NCBI RefSeq assembly: GCF_025152575.1
Contig: NZ_CP102293.1
Span: 1,302,001-1,366,000 of the forward strand
DNA from: Subdoligranulum variabile
Lineage (GTDB): Bacteria; Bacillota; Clostridia; Oscillospirales; Ruminococcaceae
Length of the DNA: 64,000 nt
Direction of reading: 5' to 3'
Under the pieces are notes generated by a model. It was not told the origin of the DNA. It made no database searches and was given only the letters and a program-made list of their open reading frames with translations. Position 1 is the stretch's first letter; each line of letters begins with the position of its first letter. The translations under genes were made by a program, and so were the position numbers. Positions 26,433-31,961 of the stretch are shown here, piece by piece.

Positions 26433-29400
26433 TTACTGTTCACGATTCTGTTTACGCCGCTTCAGCAGATACAGCGCCGTCAGCGCGGCACCCGAGAAGA
26501 CCAGCAGGCCGGCCCACAGGGCAGGCTGAGAATCATCGCTGGTCTGGGGGATCACAGCTGCAGGAGCAGCCGCAGGTGCTGCGGCAGACGCAGACGCCGT
26601 CGTTGTCTGGGTCGTCTGAATCGTCGTGGAGGAAGAGGAGCTCTCCTCATTGTCATCCTTGGAATCACCGGCCGGCTTATCCGTATACCATACCAGGGCA
26701 AAGGGCGAGAACTCGTCCGTCTGGAACTCGATATGGGTGGCCGTCTTGACGATGCCGGTCATGGTCTCCACTTCGGAGGTTGCGATATCGCCGCTGACCT
26801 CACCGGCTGCCATATCGCGATGCAGGTCCTTGAAATGCAGCACGGTGAATTCGGTATCCTGGTCGGTTCCTTCCGGGTACGGCCAGCAAACCGTCACCTT
26901 GTTGGAAGCCTTGACCCAGGCGTTGCCGTTGGAGGTATCCACCAGGTCCAGATACTTGGCGGTAAAATTGCGCACCTTGCCCGTGGCCGGAGCCCCCAGC
27001 ACCGTGTCGGCACGCTGTGCCAGCTGGATCAGACGGTCCTGCTGTGTCGGAGTGGTGTTGATCACGTCGTCAAACAGCAGCTGGACGGCATCGGCTTTTG
27101 CCAAAACGTCGGAGCCATTGATGGTGAAAGTGGTGCCGTCGGCCACCTTGACGGCGGACTCGCCGGCCGGAGCCTGGGCATTCTCGGCAATCTTGCTGCC
27201 GTAATGCACGTTGCCGGTGGTGCCGCGGACATGAAGTTTGCCTGTATTGCTAATCACCGTATACGAATTTCCATTCGGATCAGTTGTATCCGTAGCCAGT
27301 ACTGCGCCAACAGTTCCCTTATAGATTTCCATGGTAAATGTCTGGTTGACTGCAGCGCCCACGTCAAACATATCACTGATAACTATCTCATTGTCAGCAT
27401 TAGTAAACTGTACACGAAGAGGATCCTGTTTGTCACCCTGAGGTACAATTTTGTAGATACCTTCACTATCAGTGCCACCATCGTAAGTCTGCAATTTCCA
27501 GGTCTTGGTGGAGGTGGAATCCTTAAACAACAGGTTTTCCACTTTCACACCATCCGGGAGTTTCACCTCGAAGCCGGGCTCCGGCAGGGACTGGCTCCCC
27601 TTGATTTCACCATTTTCTATAACAGCGCCCTCGTAGCCTTCTTTACCGCCCATGTAGACAGTAATATCAACCGGCGTTACCTCCACAACGGTAAGAAGCT
27701 TCGTCACACCTGCCGTCGAAGGAACATAAATTTCCGTTGTGTCGGCCAATTCCGCGCTCAGGTTGCCCGTGGTTACTAGCGTTTTACCATTTTCGAAGTC
27801 ATTTTCATCCAAAGTTGCTGTCCACTTCAGGGTTGAAACGAGATTATCCGCCTCTTCCCAGCCAGTTTTGGTGCCACAGGTTACGGTTAGCGTTCCGCCG
27901 CTGTATTTTACCTCTTTGGCCGTCAAAATATTACTGGTCAGAGTCACGTTTTTCGTATCCACAGACAAAGTAGGGTCCAAATTCACCGTGAGTGTGATGT
28001 TGGTAAATTCACTTGTCTCCACAGCGGCCATTGCTTTCAAACTATCGCTCATAGTATAGGTGGCTTCGCCGGGGATTGTATAAGAGTTGGTCTCCGCATC
28101 TTTGCTGGTGGAGTTCACCTGCTCAGGCACGGTGATCGTCATTGTGCCGTAATCCGCAGTGGGTTGCACCAGCGCCACGGCATACCCGTTTGGATTGTCG
28201 CCAGCCACAGTAGCAAGCAGTTTGTCGCTCTGTGAAGCAACGCCGTAGAACGTAACCGTGGCGTCCTCCTCAGGAAGGCCCTCCTCGTTCACCGGTATCA
28301 CAGCCAAATAGGCATGCATGCCCGTTTGCATAGTGGTCGGCTTGCTCAGGTTCAAAGCAGCCTTCTGGCTGTCGCTATGTACCCACAGCGCTGCGAGTAC
28401 GTCACCCCATCCCTGGGTCTGTGCGGATGCCTGTATTACTTTAATAGCTTCATCTGAGGTGTTGCCAAATTTCACGTCACCTGCAGGGCGTTCAAGGGTG
28501 ATACCATATCTTTGCAGATAAATATTCCCATTGGAGATAACCATCTCGGGACTACTAGAGATCTGCATATAGCGCTTCACGCTGCTATACGCTGATTCGG
28601 TACTATCGTTTTTGCTAGGATCCTTTGTTGTTTTAACCACCAAATCTACAGACGCAGGGTTACTGCCATCAATCTTCATCGTGTTGCCGGAAATGGTACC
28701 CTTGGTTAGTGTTACGCGAGGATATTCTGTGGTTGTCCAGCCTTTATTGGATGTAAACGCAATGCCTGCATTCTGGTTTTCTGAAACGGTTCCGCCTTGC
28801 ATATCGAATACGCTGCCAGTTTCCACGTTTACACCGCTGCCACCATTCTTGGAAATCGTACCGCCGAGCATGGTGAACGTACCGCGCCGAACAATGACAC
28901 CGTCGCCGTCATTTTCCGTGATTGCGGCACCGTCGTGCATCGTCAATGTTTGTCCGCCAAAATTGGCAAACATATAGATGCCCTGATTATTGTTATGCAC
29001 TTGGCCATAGAGGTCGATGTTGATGCCAGAGCCCTGCACATAGAAGACACCATATACCGTTGTGTTGCCGTGAATATCAGCATACTCCCCGATTGTGCAT
29101 TTCAGGCCGTCGGATCCGTTCAGCCGCAATGCACTCCAACCAGTCACCCCAGTAATTTCGCCCTCCACATTCAGAGAAATATCATCCGGAGTGGCCTTTG
29201 CGTCGGTGTCTCCGTTAACGGTGATTGCCGTACCTGTCACATCGGAAATGAGAGCGCCATTTTTCATCGTTACCGAAGTATCATATGCACACAAAGAAAC
29301 GGCACTCGCATAGTTTACGGTTTCATTTTGAGCGTTAATCTTCGTAATCAACGAATGCTCCAACAGGTTAGCCGTTCCACTATCACGGACATGAACAGCA

Positions 29401-30725
29401 ATACCATCAAACGAGTTCCATATATCCTTATCATTGGTGATATCACTGATTTCGCCGTCGATATTAGCTGTTCCGTGTTCGTTATACACTGCCCTGCCGA
29501 CAAGGTTCGTAATCTTTGCCCCCTGCTCCATCGTAAAGGTAGCAGACTGCAGCCAAACGGCACCGGCAGCACCGGTTTCTTCCTTCTCTTTACCTTTCGT
29601 TCGATCCGTTACCGCTTCATCACAAATGACCGAACCGTCTTGCATCGTGATCGTAGCACCGTCATTTGCCCGCACTGCGGACATGCCGCCATAGTCTTTC
29701 AGTGTAGCTTTGTCGCCCAGAATGATTGACGCACCTTCACCGTATGCAGCGATCATGGCGTCCTGTACACATTGACGGTTGTCGAAGTCTTTTGCCCCTG
29801 GATCATCCGGATTGTTTTTGTCTTTTGCCTGCATAACGTAGGAAGTGGGAATCACAGCACCGTTTCCATCCACACACGTATGCAGTCCAGCGTCGCTCAG
29901 TGTCACATTTTGCAATGTCACGGTACCTTTATCCGTGGCTTCGATCATAGCCGGATTATACCAGCTACGGGATCTATCAGAAGTCGTGACCATCTTTTCC
30001 CCGCGGGTAATTGTATAAATTTGGTCGCCCCCGCTGGTGATGGTCAACTGTTTTCCGGTAATACGTGCCTGCTCGGTCACCGTGATATCAGACAGCAATT
30101 TAATCGTATCGCCATCCTTTGCAGTTGTCACCGCTTTTGCCAGCGTTGCGAACGCTGTGTCCTCACTGGTGCCGTTGTTAGTAGTATCGTTGCCGTCCAA
30201 ACCATTGACATAGTACACCACGGTTTCGGTTTCATCGAGCACCTGCACGCCAGCAGCAGGAGCCACTCGACTCGCCTTGCTCGGTGTGCCGTTTTCTTGG
30301 GCATCTGGCACATCTTCAGGCTCGTCATCGGTGGTGATGTCGGTCGTGTCTTCCGTTTCCTCGTCGCCGGTGGTGACGTTGGTCTTGTCTTCGGTTTCCC
30401 CGGCGCCGGTGGTGACGTCAGTTTTGTCTTCGGTTTCCCCGTCGCCGGTGGTGACGTCAGTTTTGTCTTCGGTTTCCTCGTCGCCAGTGGTGACGTCAGT
30501 CTTGTCTTCCTCCTGCTCGCCATCGCCAGCCTGGCCGACAGTCTGCCCGTCGCCTTCCTTGGGCAGACTTTCATCCGTTTCCGTGAGGGATTCGACTTCC
30601 TCCGTCTGCTCCGTTTCCGGCGCACCCGCAGTGGTCTCCGCTGCCAGTGCGCCCAATGGCATGGCATTCAGGCAGACCAGCAGCGCCAATGTGGCCGCAA
30701 AAATTTTTCCGCTTCGTCTTTTCAT
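26433..30725 (-). CDS. Giant sortase-anchored surface protein (putative adhesin), downstream of an invertible promoter
   Basis: The 1430-residue protein begins with a signal peptide ending LGALAAE (about residue 30). A low-complexity acidic region contains five 13-residue repeats (73-137). From about 165 onward a long parallel beta-helix-like region appears (turns such as GGTISKNGGSGVNVETGS, with many Gly/Asn turns), followed by several strand-rich domains. The end has a sorting-like motif IPQTSD (1392-1397), a membrane helix and a KRRKQNREQ tail, so it is probably covalently linked to the cell wall by a sortase. The start follows AAGGGAG. The interior (27.2-30.2 kb) is visibly less GC-rich than its neighbours. 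Expression probably depends on a DNA segment flanked by inverted repeats just upstream. Confidence 0.87.
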   Translation of the reverse strand: MKRRSGKIFAATLALLVCLNAMPLGALAAETTAGAPETEQTEEVESLTETDESLPKEGDGQTVGQAGDGEQEEDKTDVTTGDEETEDKTDVTTGDGETEDKTDVTTGAGETEDKTNVTTGDEETEDTTDITTDDEPEDVPDAQENGTPSKASRVAPAAGVQVLDETETVVYYVNGLDGNDTTNNGTSEDTAFATLAKAVTTAKDGDTIKLLSDITVTEQARITGKQLTITSGGDQIYTITRGEKMVTTSDRSRSWYNPAMIEATDKGTVTLQNVTLSDAGLHTCVDGNGAVIPTSYVMQAKDKNNPDDPGAKDFDNRQCVQDAMIAAYGEGASIILGDKATLKDYGGMSAVRANDGATITMQDGSVICDEAVTDRTKGKEKEETGAAGAVWLQSATFTMEQGAKITNLVGRAVYNEHGTANIDGEISDITNDKDIWNSFDGIAVHVRDSGTANLLEHSLITKINAQNETVNYASAVSLCAYDTSVTMKNGALISDVTGTAITVNGDTDAKATPDDISLNVEGEITGVTGWSALRLNGSDGLKCTIGEYADIHGNTTVYGVFYVQGSGINIDLYGQVHNNNQGIYMFANFGGQTLTMHDGAAITENDGDGVIVRRGTFTMLGGTISKNGGSGVNVETGSVFDMQGGTVSENQNAGIAFTSNKGWTTTEYPRVTLTKGTISGNTMKIDGSNPASVDLVVKTTKDPSKNDSTESAYSSVKRYMQISSSPEMVISNGNIYLQRYGITLERPAGDVKFGNTSDEAIKVIQASAQTQGWGDVLAALWVHSDSQKAALNLSKPTTMQTGMHAYLAVIPVNEEGLPEEDATVTFYGVASQSDKLLATVAGDNPNGYAVALVQPTADYGTMTITVPEQVNSTSKDAETNSYTIPGEATYTMSDSLKAMAAVETSEFTNITLTVNLDPTLSVDTKNVTLTSNILTAKEVKYSGGTLTVTCGTKTGWEEADNLVSTLKWTATLDENDFENGKTLVTTGNLSAELADTTEIYVPSTAGVTKLLTVVEVTPVDITVYMGGKEGYEGAVIENGEIKGSQSLPEPGFEVKLPDGVKVENLLFKDSTSTKTWKLQTYDGGTDSEGIYKIVPQGDKQDPLRVQFTNADNEIVISDMFDVGAAVNQTFTMEIYKGTVGAVLATDTTDPNGNSYTVISNTGKLHVRGTTGNVHYGSKIAENAQAPAGESAVKVADGTTFTINGSDVLAKADAVQLLFDDVINTTPTQQDRLIQLAQRADTVLGAPATGKVRNFTAKYLDLVDTSNGNAWVKASNKVTVCWPYPEGTDQDTEFTVLHFKDLHRDMAAGEVSGDIATSEVETMTGIVKTATHIEFQTDEFSPFALVWYTDKPAGDSKDDNEESSSSSTTIQTTQTTTASASAAAPAAAPAAVIPQTSDDSQPALWAGLLVFSGAALTALYLLKRRKQNREQ
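30315..30509 (-). repeat. Five tandem 39-bp repeats in the surface protein gene
   Basis: Five copies encode EDKTDVTTGDEET-like units. The first three are nearly identical in DNA. The unit is in frame (13 codons), so copy-number change would alter stalk length without a frameshift. Confidence 0.9.
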
Positions 30726-30840
30726 GACCTATGCTCCCTTTTGTGTAACAAATGGTACGCCCCGACGTGTCACACTGCCATCGGAGGTCTCCGGCCTTTG
30801 CCTCTACAGGACTGCACACAGCAACGTTCAAAAAGCGAGT

Positions 30841-30866
30841 CCACCACAAAAGCATGGTTTTGTGGT
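30841..30866 (+). repeat. Left inverted repeat of the invertible segment (26 bp)
   Basis: This 26-bp sequence is the exact reverse complement of 31116-31141. It contains ACCACAAAA and TTTTGTGGT arms around an asymmetric 6-bp core GCATGG. That is the layout expected for a tyrosine recombinase crossover site. Confidence 0.88.
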
Positions 30867-30893
30867 AGGAAGCACTTTCTATAAAGGAAAGAG

Positions 30894-30919
30894 CCGTCGG
30901 AATCTGTGATTTTCGACGG
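30894..30919 (-). terminator. Hairpin inside the invertible segment, possible attenuator
   Basis: CCGTCG and CGACGG arms, extended by AATC/GATT pairing, form an imperfect hairpin. On the minus strand CTCTTTCCTTTAT follows. In the present orientation it could stop leftward read-through into the surface gene. The U tract is interrupted. Confidence 0.35.
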
Positions 30920-31039
30920 ATTGTATAGTTGCCTGCTCAAAAAAGCGTACACGAAATTCTCATCGGAGCTCTCTTCTTGGCGCCGGTGTCATTTTTCGTG
31001 TGCGTTTTTTGTGCACTTCCCCCAAAACCGATGAAAAAC

Positions 31040-31068
31040 TTGTTTTTTCGAAATTATTGTGATACGAT
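31040..31068 (+). promoter_or_regulatory. Promoter within the invertible segment, pointing rightward
   Basis: TTGTTT (31040-31045), 17 bp, then TACGAT (31063-31068) with an extended TG element two bases upstream. It directs transcription away from the surface gene and antisense to the recombinase in the sequenced orientation. Confidence 0.6.
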
Positions 31069-31115
31069 GGGGAGGAACATTTCCGGAATTTGTTTATGTA
31101 GGAAAGATGCACTGC

Positions 31116-31141
31116 ACCACAAAACCATGCTTTTGTGGTGG
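31116..31141 (-). repeat. Right inverted repeat of the invertible segment (26 bp)
   Basis: Exact reverse complement of 30841-30866, with core CCATGC. Its last base directly abuts the stop codon of the recombinase gene (31142-31144, minus strand). Confidence 0.88.
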
Positions 31142-31961
31142 TTACAGCAGCAGATGCATTTTATCGATAAGACGTTGATGTTCCCTGCCGCTTTCCACGA
31201 TATACAGGCGGGTGGTTTCGATGCTGGAATGTCCCAGCAGATCCGCCAGCTTGGAAAGATTCTTTTCCAGTTTGTAAAAAGCCCTGGCGAACAGATGCCT
31301 GAGATTGTGCGGGAATACTTTTTTGCACGCAACACCGGCCTGTTTGCACAGGGCTTTCATTTCGTGCCAAAGGTTGGAGCGGTCCAGCGGACGGCCTCCC
31401 GCTGTCACGAACACCGCGCCGGAGGTTCTGCCCTGGGCCCGGCACCAGTTTAGCAGCTTGCGGCACAGATCCCGCGGCAGGAAAATCTCGCGGCATTTGC
31501 CTTTGCAGTGCACCGTAGCATGTCCCTGCCGCACCGCCTCCACCGTAATGAACTGCAGTTCCGACACCCGGATCCCTGTGGAAGCCAGCGTCTGCAGTAC
31601 CATCAGCAGCCGCTCTTTGTGTGTATTGCGCGCGGCCGTCAGCAGCCGGTGATATTCCTTCCCGGTCCTCGTCGCAGAAGGCCCGACGCTGTACTTTCAG
31701 CGGCCGTGCACAGCATTCCGCATGGCCGCAAAACACAAAATACCCGTTCACCGCCGCCATCATGGCGTTGATGCTGGCCACTGCATATCCCTTTTGTTCC
31801 AGCATCTCCCGCCAGCGCACCGCCGCGGTATGGCTCAGGCGCTTGTCGGGCGGGGTCTGTGCAAAGTACATCTGTACGTTTCGCAGATAGTTTTCGATCG
31901 TACCGGCACTTCGTTCCCGCTTGGCCAGATACGCGGCATATTTTCTGAGTTCCTGTATCAT
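31142..31961 (-). pseudogene. Tyrosine site-specific recombinase, frameshifted
   Basis: Two adjacent frames on the minus strand together make one tyrosine recombinase of about 272 residues. The first 101 codons, from the ATG at 31961 (after AAGGAG), give the SAM-like core-binding domain (ERSAGTIENYLRNVQMYF). After base 31659 the frame is lost, and it resumes at 31657 with EYHRLLTAAR and the catalytic domain. That domain has Arg in TGIRVSEL, HNLRH, LGHSS and Tyr in LYIVES, so all catalytic residues are present. A single extra base, or a short deletion of 8 or 11 nt removing an ELT-like linker, would explain the break. It is the natural candidate to invert the neighbouring segment. As written it cannot make a full-length enzyme. 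Confidence 0.8.

What the first reader, a model, noticed from the sequence alone, without database searches (positions are those of the whole stretch)
30841..31141. Invertible promoter switch upstream of a giant surface adhesin
Perfect 26-bp inverted repeats (30841-30866 and 31116-31141) bound a 249-bp AT-rich, gene-free core. Each repeat has 9-bp arms around an asymmetric 6-bp core, GCATGG on one side and CCATGC on the other, as needed for inversion rather than deletion. The only good promoter inside (TTGTTT-17-TACGAT, extended -10) points away from the surface protein gene, while a tyrosine recombinase gene ends at the distal repeat. Flipping would bring the promoter to the surface gene, so the sequenced copy should be the OFF phase of an ON/OFF adhesin. 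The layout is known for other gut bacteria. The specific 26-bp site and this adhesin/recombinase set are not ones I recognise.
Basis: partly seen in the sequence, partly recalled or inferred. Interest (0 to 1): 0.92.

Follow-up and report, generated by a model that had tools for sequence, protein, structure and literature searches.

The report
Promoter flip-switch beside broken recombinase gene
A short DNA segment carrying a promoter looks able to flip and so turn a large cell-surface protein on or off in a gut bacterium; it belongs to a widespread family of such switches, but here the gene for the likely flipping enzyme is broken, so this copy may be stuck off.

Summary
In detail: a perfect 26-bp inverted-repeat pair bounds a 249-bp gene-free segment between a tyrosine recombinase gene (Int1) and a 1430-aa wall-anchored protein. 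Relatives show a family. Of 80 named-collection Int1 loci, 62 have such a segment just 3' of Int1; 12 of the other 18 have contigs that end there. Most segments carry one extended -10 promoter whose direction varies: of 99 segments 68 point at Int1 (OFF), 23 at the target (ON), 8 unclear. Homologous segments lie in opposite orientations in several species pairs.

Two things change the reading. Int1 here is frameshifted, and the only other family Int1 found in this genome has a premature stop, so the sequenced strain may be locked, this copy OFF and the other ON. A central terminator-like hairpin sits in the segment.

The target is a predicted beta-solenoid; "adhesin" is unproven. The kind is known: it works like E. 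coli fim and is probably the published Clostridia inverton group 139. In 12 of 17 genus loci a catalytically dead recombinase paralogue lies under the switch; it is absent here and is the freshest lead.

The parts
30841..31141 (.). invertible segment, repeats included
   Evidence: family layout
30841..30866 (.). proximal 26-bp inverted repeat (recombination site)
31116..31141 (.). distal 26-bp inverted repeat (recombination site)
31040..31068 (+). promoter-like element TTGTTT-17-TACGAT, extended -10, pointing to the recombinase (OFF orientation)
   Evidence: shuffle control (window alone p = 0.06)
30940..31010 (.). 17-pair hairpin flanked by A and T runs, possible bidirectional terminator
   Evidence: -34.6 kcal/mol on +, z -7.0; -21.7, z -2.8 on -
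26433..30725 (-). target gene: 1430-aa wall-anchored beta-solenoid protein
30734..30742 (-). likely ribosome binding site of the target gene
   Evidence: read; not tested
31142..31657 (-). catalytic part of the tyrosine recombinase Int1 (all catalytic residues present)
   Evidence: (PF00589, 5.6e-24)
31659..31961 (-). N-terminal part of Int1, in a different reading frame from the catalytic part (frameshift)

Best explanation
This is an invertible-promoter phase switch of a family found across gut Clostridia. A tyrosine recombinase (Int1), encoded with its 3' end at one repeat, is thought to recombine the two inverted repeats and flip a ~250-bp cassette that holds one promoter and a central terminator-like hairpin. 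In one orientation the promoter would transcribe the wall-anchored beta-solenoid protein (ON); in the other it fires toward Int1 (OFF). The window holds the OFF orientation. Supported by comparison: the cassette, its promoter and the two orientations across species. Inferred: that Int1 is the enzyme (constant adjacency), that OFF is silent, and that this copy is now locked or slow (frameshift in its Int1, stop in the only other family Int1 found in the genome).
For: Perfect unique repeats. 20 of 21 wide regions read have a repeat-bounded segment (204-317 bp between repeats) beside Int1. 62 of 80 named-collection loci have a repeat pair scoring 13 or more just 3' of Int1; best upstream control 11 (77 loci), best shuffle 12. 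A promoter scoring 13.9 or more in 70 of 78 segments against 11.7% of shuffles. Direction varies: OFF 51, ON 19, unclear 8 of 78; OFF 68, ON 23, unclear 8 of 99. Of the 45 best-matching segment pairs listed, 24 match in opposite orientation, e.g. L044/L163, L173/L174, and this genome's paralogue L034 against L183. Contigs end within 260 bp 3' of Int1 in 12 of 80 loci and within 260 bp 5' in 0 of 80 (p = 3e-4). Disrupted Int1 here.
Against: No reads or second strain of this species were available, so no inversion is shown here. The window's promoter is not significant alone (p = 0.06; no site). Its segment has only short matches to others, in opposite orientation to L043 (score 34) and in the same orientation as L163 (32), null maximum 26. 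6 of the 68 loci with room have no clear repeat pair; L048 has none. The 260-bp limit and the repeat-score cut were set after seeing the data. Other tyrosine recombinases exist in the genome (22 matches) and might act in trans.
Confidence: 0.75

Rival explanations
1. The switch is fully active in this strain: the frameshift is a sequencing or assembly error, or another recombinase acts on the sites in trans, as RecV does on distant sites in C. difficile.
For: 22 Phage_integrase matches in the genome; RecV acts on several unlinked switches (PMC5903667 section 11); an intact protein 95% identical to the catalytic part exists (P0001).
Against: Only two family Int1 copies match at E <= 1e-40 in this genome and both are disrupted, by different lesions; the other genome loci carrying tyrosine recombinases showed weak or no similarity to Int1. 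A shortfall of 11 nt is not a typical one-base error.
Confidence: 0.3
2. CwpV-like mechanism: the promoter lies outside and inversion makes or breaks a terminator in the leader.
For: The proximal repeat itself folds and is followed by a T-rich stretch; cwpV works this way in C. difficile (PMC2784873 passages).
Against: A promoter-like element lies inside most segments and changes direction between species; no promoter listed between repeat and target.
Confidence: 0.08
3. A remnant of a mobile element: the repeats and recombinase are att-like leftovers without regulatory role.
For: Int1 is broken here; related Int1 genes also occur on contigs filed as viral.
Against: The same layout recurs beside Int1 in dozens of genomes with the promoter in either direction; 9 of 10 viral-collection loci examined, of 49 fetched, have the repeats too.
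Confidence: 0.04

Closest known systems
Clostridia inverton group 139 with tyrosine-recombinase invertase group 35 (PMC11892184)
   Same: Clostridia, adjacent tyrosine recombinase, short inverted repeats about 205-230 bp apart in two printed examples; orientation changes over passages and on mucin carriers. Intestinimonas butyriciproducens appears in both sets.
   Different: Their repeat motif is in supplements I could not open, so identity of the families is likely, not tested. Gemmiger members, the broken recombinase and the dead paralogue were not seen in the parts I read.
E. coli fim switch (fimS, FimB/FimE)
   Same: Promoter inside an invertible element next to tyrosine recombinase genes, driving a surface structure; recombinase level depends on phase. 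That fimE's 3' end faces the switch is recalled.
   Different: Int1 homology to FimE not tested; different repeats; one recombinase here; target is a wall-anchored protein.
C. difficile CwpV switch and RecV
   Same: Clostridial, tyrosine recombinase, 21-bp imperfect repeats 195 bp apart upstream of a large wall protein.
   Different: The cwpV promoter lies outside the inverted region and recV is not in its vicinity.

Membership tests
Invertible-promoter phase switch (inverton) | inverted repeats bounding a short intergenic segment | tested here: met
Invertible-promoter phase switch (inverton) | promoter inside the segment, facing the regulated gene in one orientation | tested here: met
   by sequence and family comparison; window alone p = 0.06
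Invertible-promoter phase switch (inverton) | both orientations occur | tested here: inconclusive
   met across species; not testable for this strain
Invertible-promoter phase switch (inverton) | a working recombinase | tested here: inconclusive
   family Int1 is intact in most relatives; both copies found in this genome are disrupted
Inverton group 139 / invertase group 35 (PMC11892184) | shared repeat motif | not testable with these tools
   motif in supplements, no look-ups allowed
Inverton group 139 / invertase group 35 (PMC11892184) | adjacent tyrosine-type recombinase in Clostridia | tested here: met
Tyrosine recombinase (Phage_integrase) | R-K-H-R-H-Y catalytic residues | tested here: met
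   present in the window's catalytic part; PF00589 5.6e-24; the reading frame is broken upstream
CwpV-type switch | promoter outside the invertible region | tested here: not met
   promoter-like element lies inside; 5' ends not mapped

The most novel reading that the evidence does not exclude
The family is a self-limiting switch. In OFF the cassette promoter fires antisense into Int1 and damps it, so OFF is stable; in ON Int1 is free and, in most loci of this genus, the switch also drives a catalytically dead recombinase paralogue (Int2) that binds the same repeats and tunes flipping. Strains like this one escape by losing Int1 and freezing each copy in one phase. The 68:23 OFF excess fits. 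A link between disrupted Int1 and ON is only a weak trend: 3 of 5 against 19 of 85, p = 0.09; p = 0.03 if the unclear L050 is called ON; the 85 were taken as intact, not each checked.
Probability: 0.25. Interest if true: 0.65.

Novelty: new member of a known kind. Interest (0 to 1): 0.42.

Why it matters
It shows that Gemmiger-type gut Clostridia place giant wall-anchored proteins behind a common recombinase-promoter cassette, and gives a site and enzyme family that can be tested directly. The broken recombinase warns that an apparent phase switch in a finished genome may be frozen. A dead recombinase paralogue under switch control would be an unusual way to regulate inversion, if it binds the sites.

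Tried and rejected
The strict promoter scan of the bare region lists no promoter; the promoter claim rests on the family. A generic hairpin count over 83 segments was too crude (15 with both A and T runs, 43 with either; it did not pick the window's central hairpin), so the hairpin is claimed for the window only. The exact site is absent from the viral collection. Disrupted Int1 against orientation gave only a weak trend (genus-only tables typed by hand: p = 0.03 and 0.07). Pfam names no domain in the target.

Literature: answered searches were. Some searches failed on the database, as did the reading; I claim nothing as absent from print. Seen: PMC11892184 (outline, sections 6, 7, 8, passages of 5, 10, 23), PMC5903667 (outline with abstract, sections 11, 12), PMC2784873 (passages). 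The rest are listings.

Full report
What is there. The window lies in a single-contig genome of 3,244,954 bases. Contigs of same-genus genomes match Candidatus Gemmiger records found with Int1 by length (G024:C42 and DXFO01000049.1, both 35,041 bases), so the host belongs to the Gemmiger group. At 30841-30866 and 31116-31141 lie perfect 26-bp inverted repeats 249 bp apart, exact only there in the genome. On one side, 115 bp away, starts a 1430-aa gene on the minus strand; on the other the stop codon of a tyrosine recombinase gene, Int1, abuts the repeat.

Promoter. TTGTTT-17-TACGAT with TG before the -10 points toward Int1 (31040-31068). 6% of shuffles of this segment score as high and a stricter scan lists no promoter, so alone it proves little.

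Family. A DNA search with the segment plus Int1 matched 33 of 100 relatives. Of 21 regions read with wide flanks (the window, its paralogue and 19 from relatives) 20 have a repeat-bounded segment with 204-317 bp between the repeats beside Int1; L048 does not. In 80 named-collection loci (the best 80 of 580) a repeat pair scoring 13 or more is found in 62, often with arms such as ACATAAT/ATTATGT. Of the other 18, 12 have contigs that end within 260 bp of the matched end of Int1 (one of them, L080, inside the gene) and 6 have room but no clear pair. Upstream controls reach 11 at best (77 loci), single shuffles 12. In many loci a large reading frame follows, for example 1040 aa at this genome's second copy, L034.

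Two states. Of 78 segments the best promoter points to Int1 in 51, to the target in 19, unclear in 8. With 5 more genus segments and 21 from 26 family loci, and identical ones merged, it is 68, 23 and 8 of 99; loci without a detectable repeat pair were dropped, and a few loci trimmed differently (e.g. L115 and L191) may remain counted twice. In the genus: 14 OFF, 7 ON, 1 unclear of 22. A promoter score of 13.9 or more occurs in 70 of 78 segments against 11.7% of shuffles. Of the 45 best-matching segment pairs listed, 24 match in opposite and 21 in the same orientation, e.g. L044/L163 (reverse 125, forward 38), L173/L174 (83, 17), L034/L183 (72, 29). The window's own segment has only short matches: opposite to L043 (34), same as L163 (32), null maximum 26. 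Contig ends cluster at the segment: 12 of 80 within 260 bp 3' of Int1, 0 of 80 within 260 bp 5' (p = 3e-4; the limit was set after seeing the data). One relative's contig (G046:C19) is palindromic over the 7 kb read, with its centre between two facing Int1 copies. Both fit mixed orientations in the reads. Together this supports inversion in the family; it does not show it for this strain.

Broken recombinase. Int1's N-terminal and catalytic parts are in different frames: 22 nt separate two landmark motifs where 15 of 17 frames measured have 33. The only other family Int1 found in the genome has an early TAG. Of the 30 best genus matches (E <= 1.1e-90), 5 are disrupted (window, its paralogue, G021, G025:C35, G034), 2 are cut by contig ends, and G019 is partly matched and was not examined. 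Outside the genus 1 of 75 listed matches has an internal stop and 3 are partial. An intact protein 95% identical to the catalytic part exists (P0001). The simplest reading is that both switches of this strain have lost their enzyme, the window copy OFF and the paralogue ON. Sequencing error and a trans-acting enzyme (22 integrase matches) are not excluded.

Hairpin. The centre of the cassette folds into a 17-pair stem with A and T tails (-34.6 kcal/mol, z -7.0 on +; -21.7, z -2.8 on -). Lying within the segment, it separates Int1 from the target in either orientation and could stop read-through, leaving control to the promoter. This is inferred.

Target. No Pfam family at E 0.1; many of the listed homologues carry SLH domains. 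The L034 and L036 targets share its C-terminal part (about 340-410 aa, 29% and 36% identity); that of L036 also ends in an IPQT anchor. Residues 150-900 model as a beta-solenoid (mean pLDDT 89). The nearest solved folds are a lacto-N-biosidase, a phage tail protein, pertactin, polysaccharide lyases and epimerases, and antigen 43, with TM-scores below 0.3 by query length: fold class only. Adhesin or glycan-active enzyme is open.

Mechanism. Shown by comparison: cassette, promoter, two orientations across species. Inferred: Int1 is the invertase; OFF is silent; the OFF promoter makes antisense RNA into Int1. The last would resemble fim, where phase-dependent termination beyond fimE alters FimE level and favours OFF (PMC2784873 passage), and could explain the OFF excess; selection or sampling could too.

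Dead paralogue. In 12 of 17 genus loci, and 5 of 61 others, a second recombinase-like gene, Int2, lies just downstream of the cassette. The 12 genus copies lack the first catalytic arginine, the first histidine and the tyrosine in the alignment. Of the 5 others, two were too short to judge, two keep the first arginine but lack the tyrosine, one lacks both. One modelled copy (mean pLDDT 81, pTM 0.51) finds Xer and lambda-type recombinases as nearest folds. The window lacks the gene. Whether Int2 touches the sites is untested.

Known or new. The kind is known. PMC11892184 reports Clostridia inverton group 139 (33 invertons, 32 in Clostridia) tied to adjacent tyrosine recombinases, with orientation shifts in culture. 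That is probably this family, but its motif could not be compared. New here are the member itself, its broken enzyme and the link to Int2, as far as the parts I read go.

Noticed in passing
L034 (G000:C1:1655081-1672000), segment at L034 7691-7995: A second switch of the same family in this genome, in the ON orientation, with Int2 and a 1040-aa wall-type protein downstream; its Int1 has a premature stop.
   Followed up: partly
L034 7923-8828, L037 13100-14059, L040 7896-8879, L044 4216-5217 and others: Int2: recombinase-fold paralogue without key catalytic residues, first gene after the invertible segment in 12 of 17 genus loci. L044 carries a third, also degenerate, copy.
   Followed up: partly
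L212-L219, L221 (IMG/VR contigs): 9 of the 10 closest Int1 loci in the viral collection (49 fetched) have a repeat pair beside Int1, so the cassette may also serve prophages (no control run there).
   Followed up: partly
L261 (G046:C19:5500-12500): Stretch palindromic over its 7 kb, centred between two facing Int1 copies, probably an assembly artefact of mixed orientations.
   Followed up: partly
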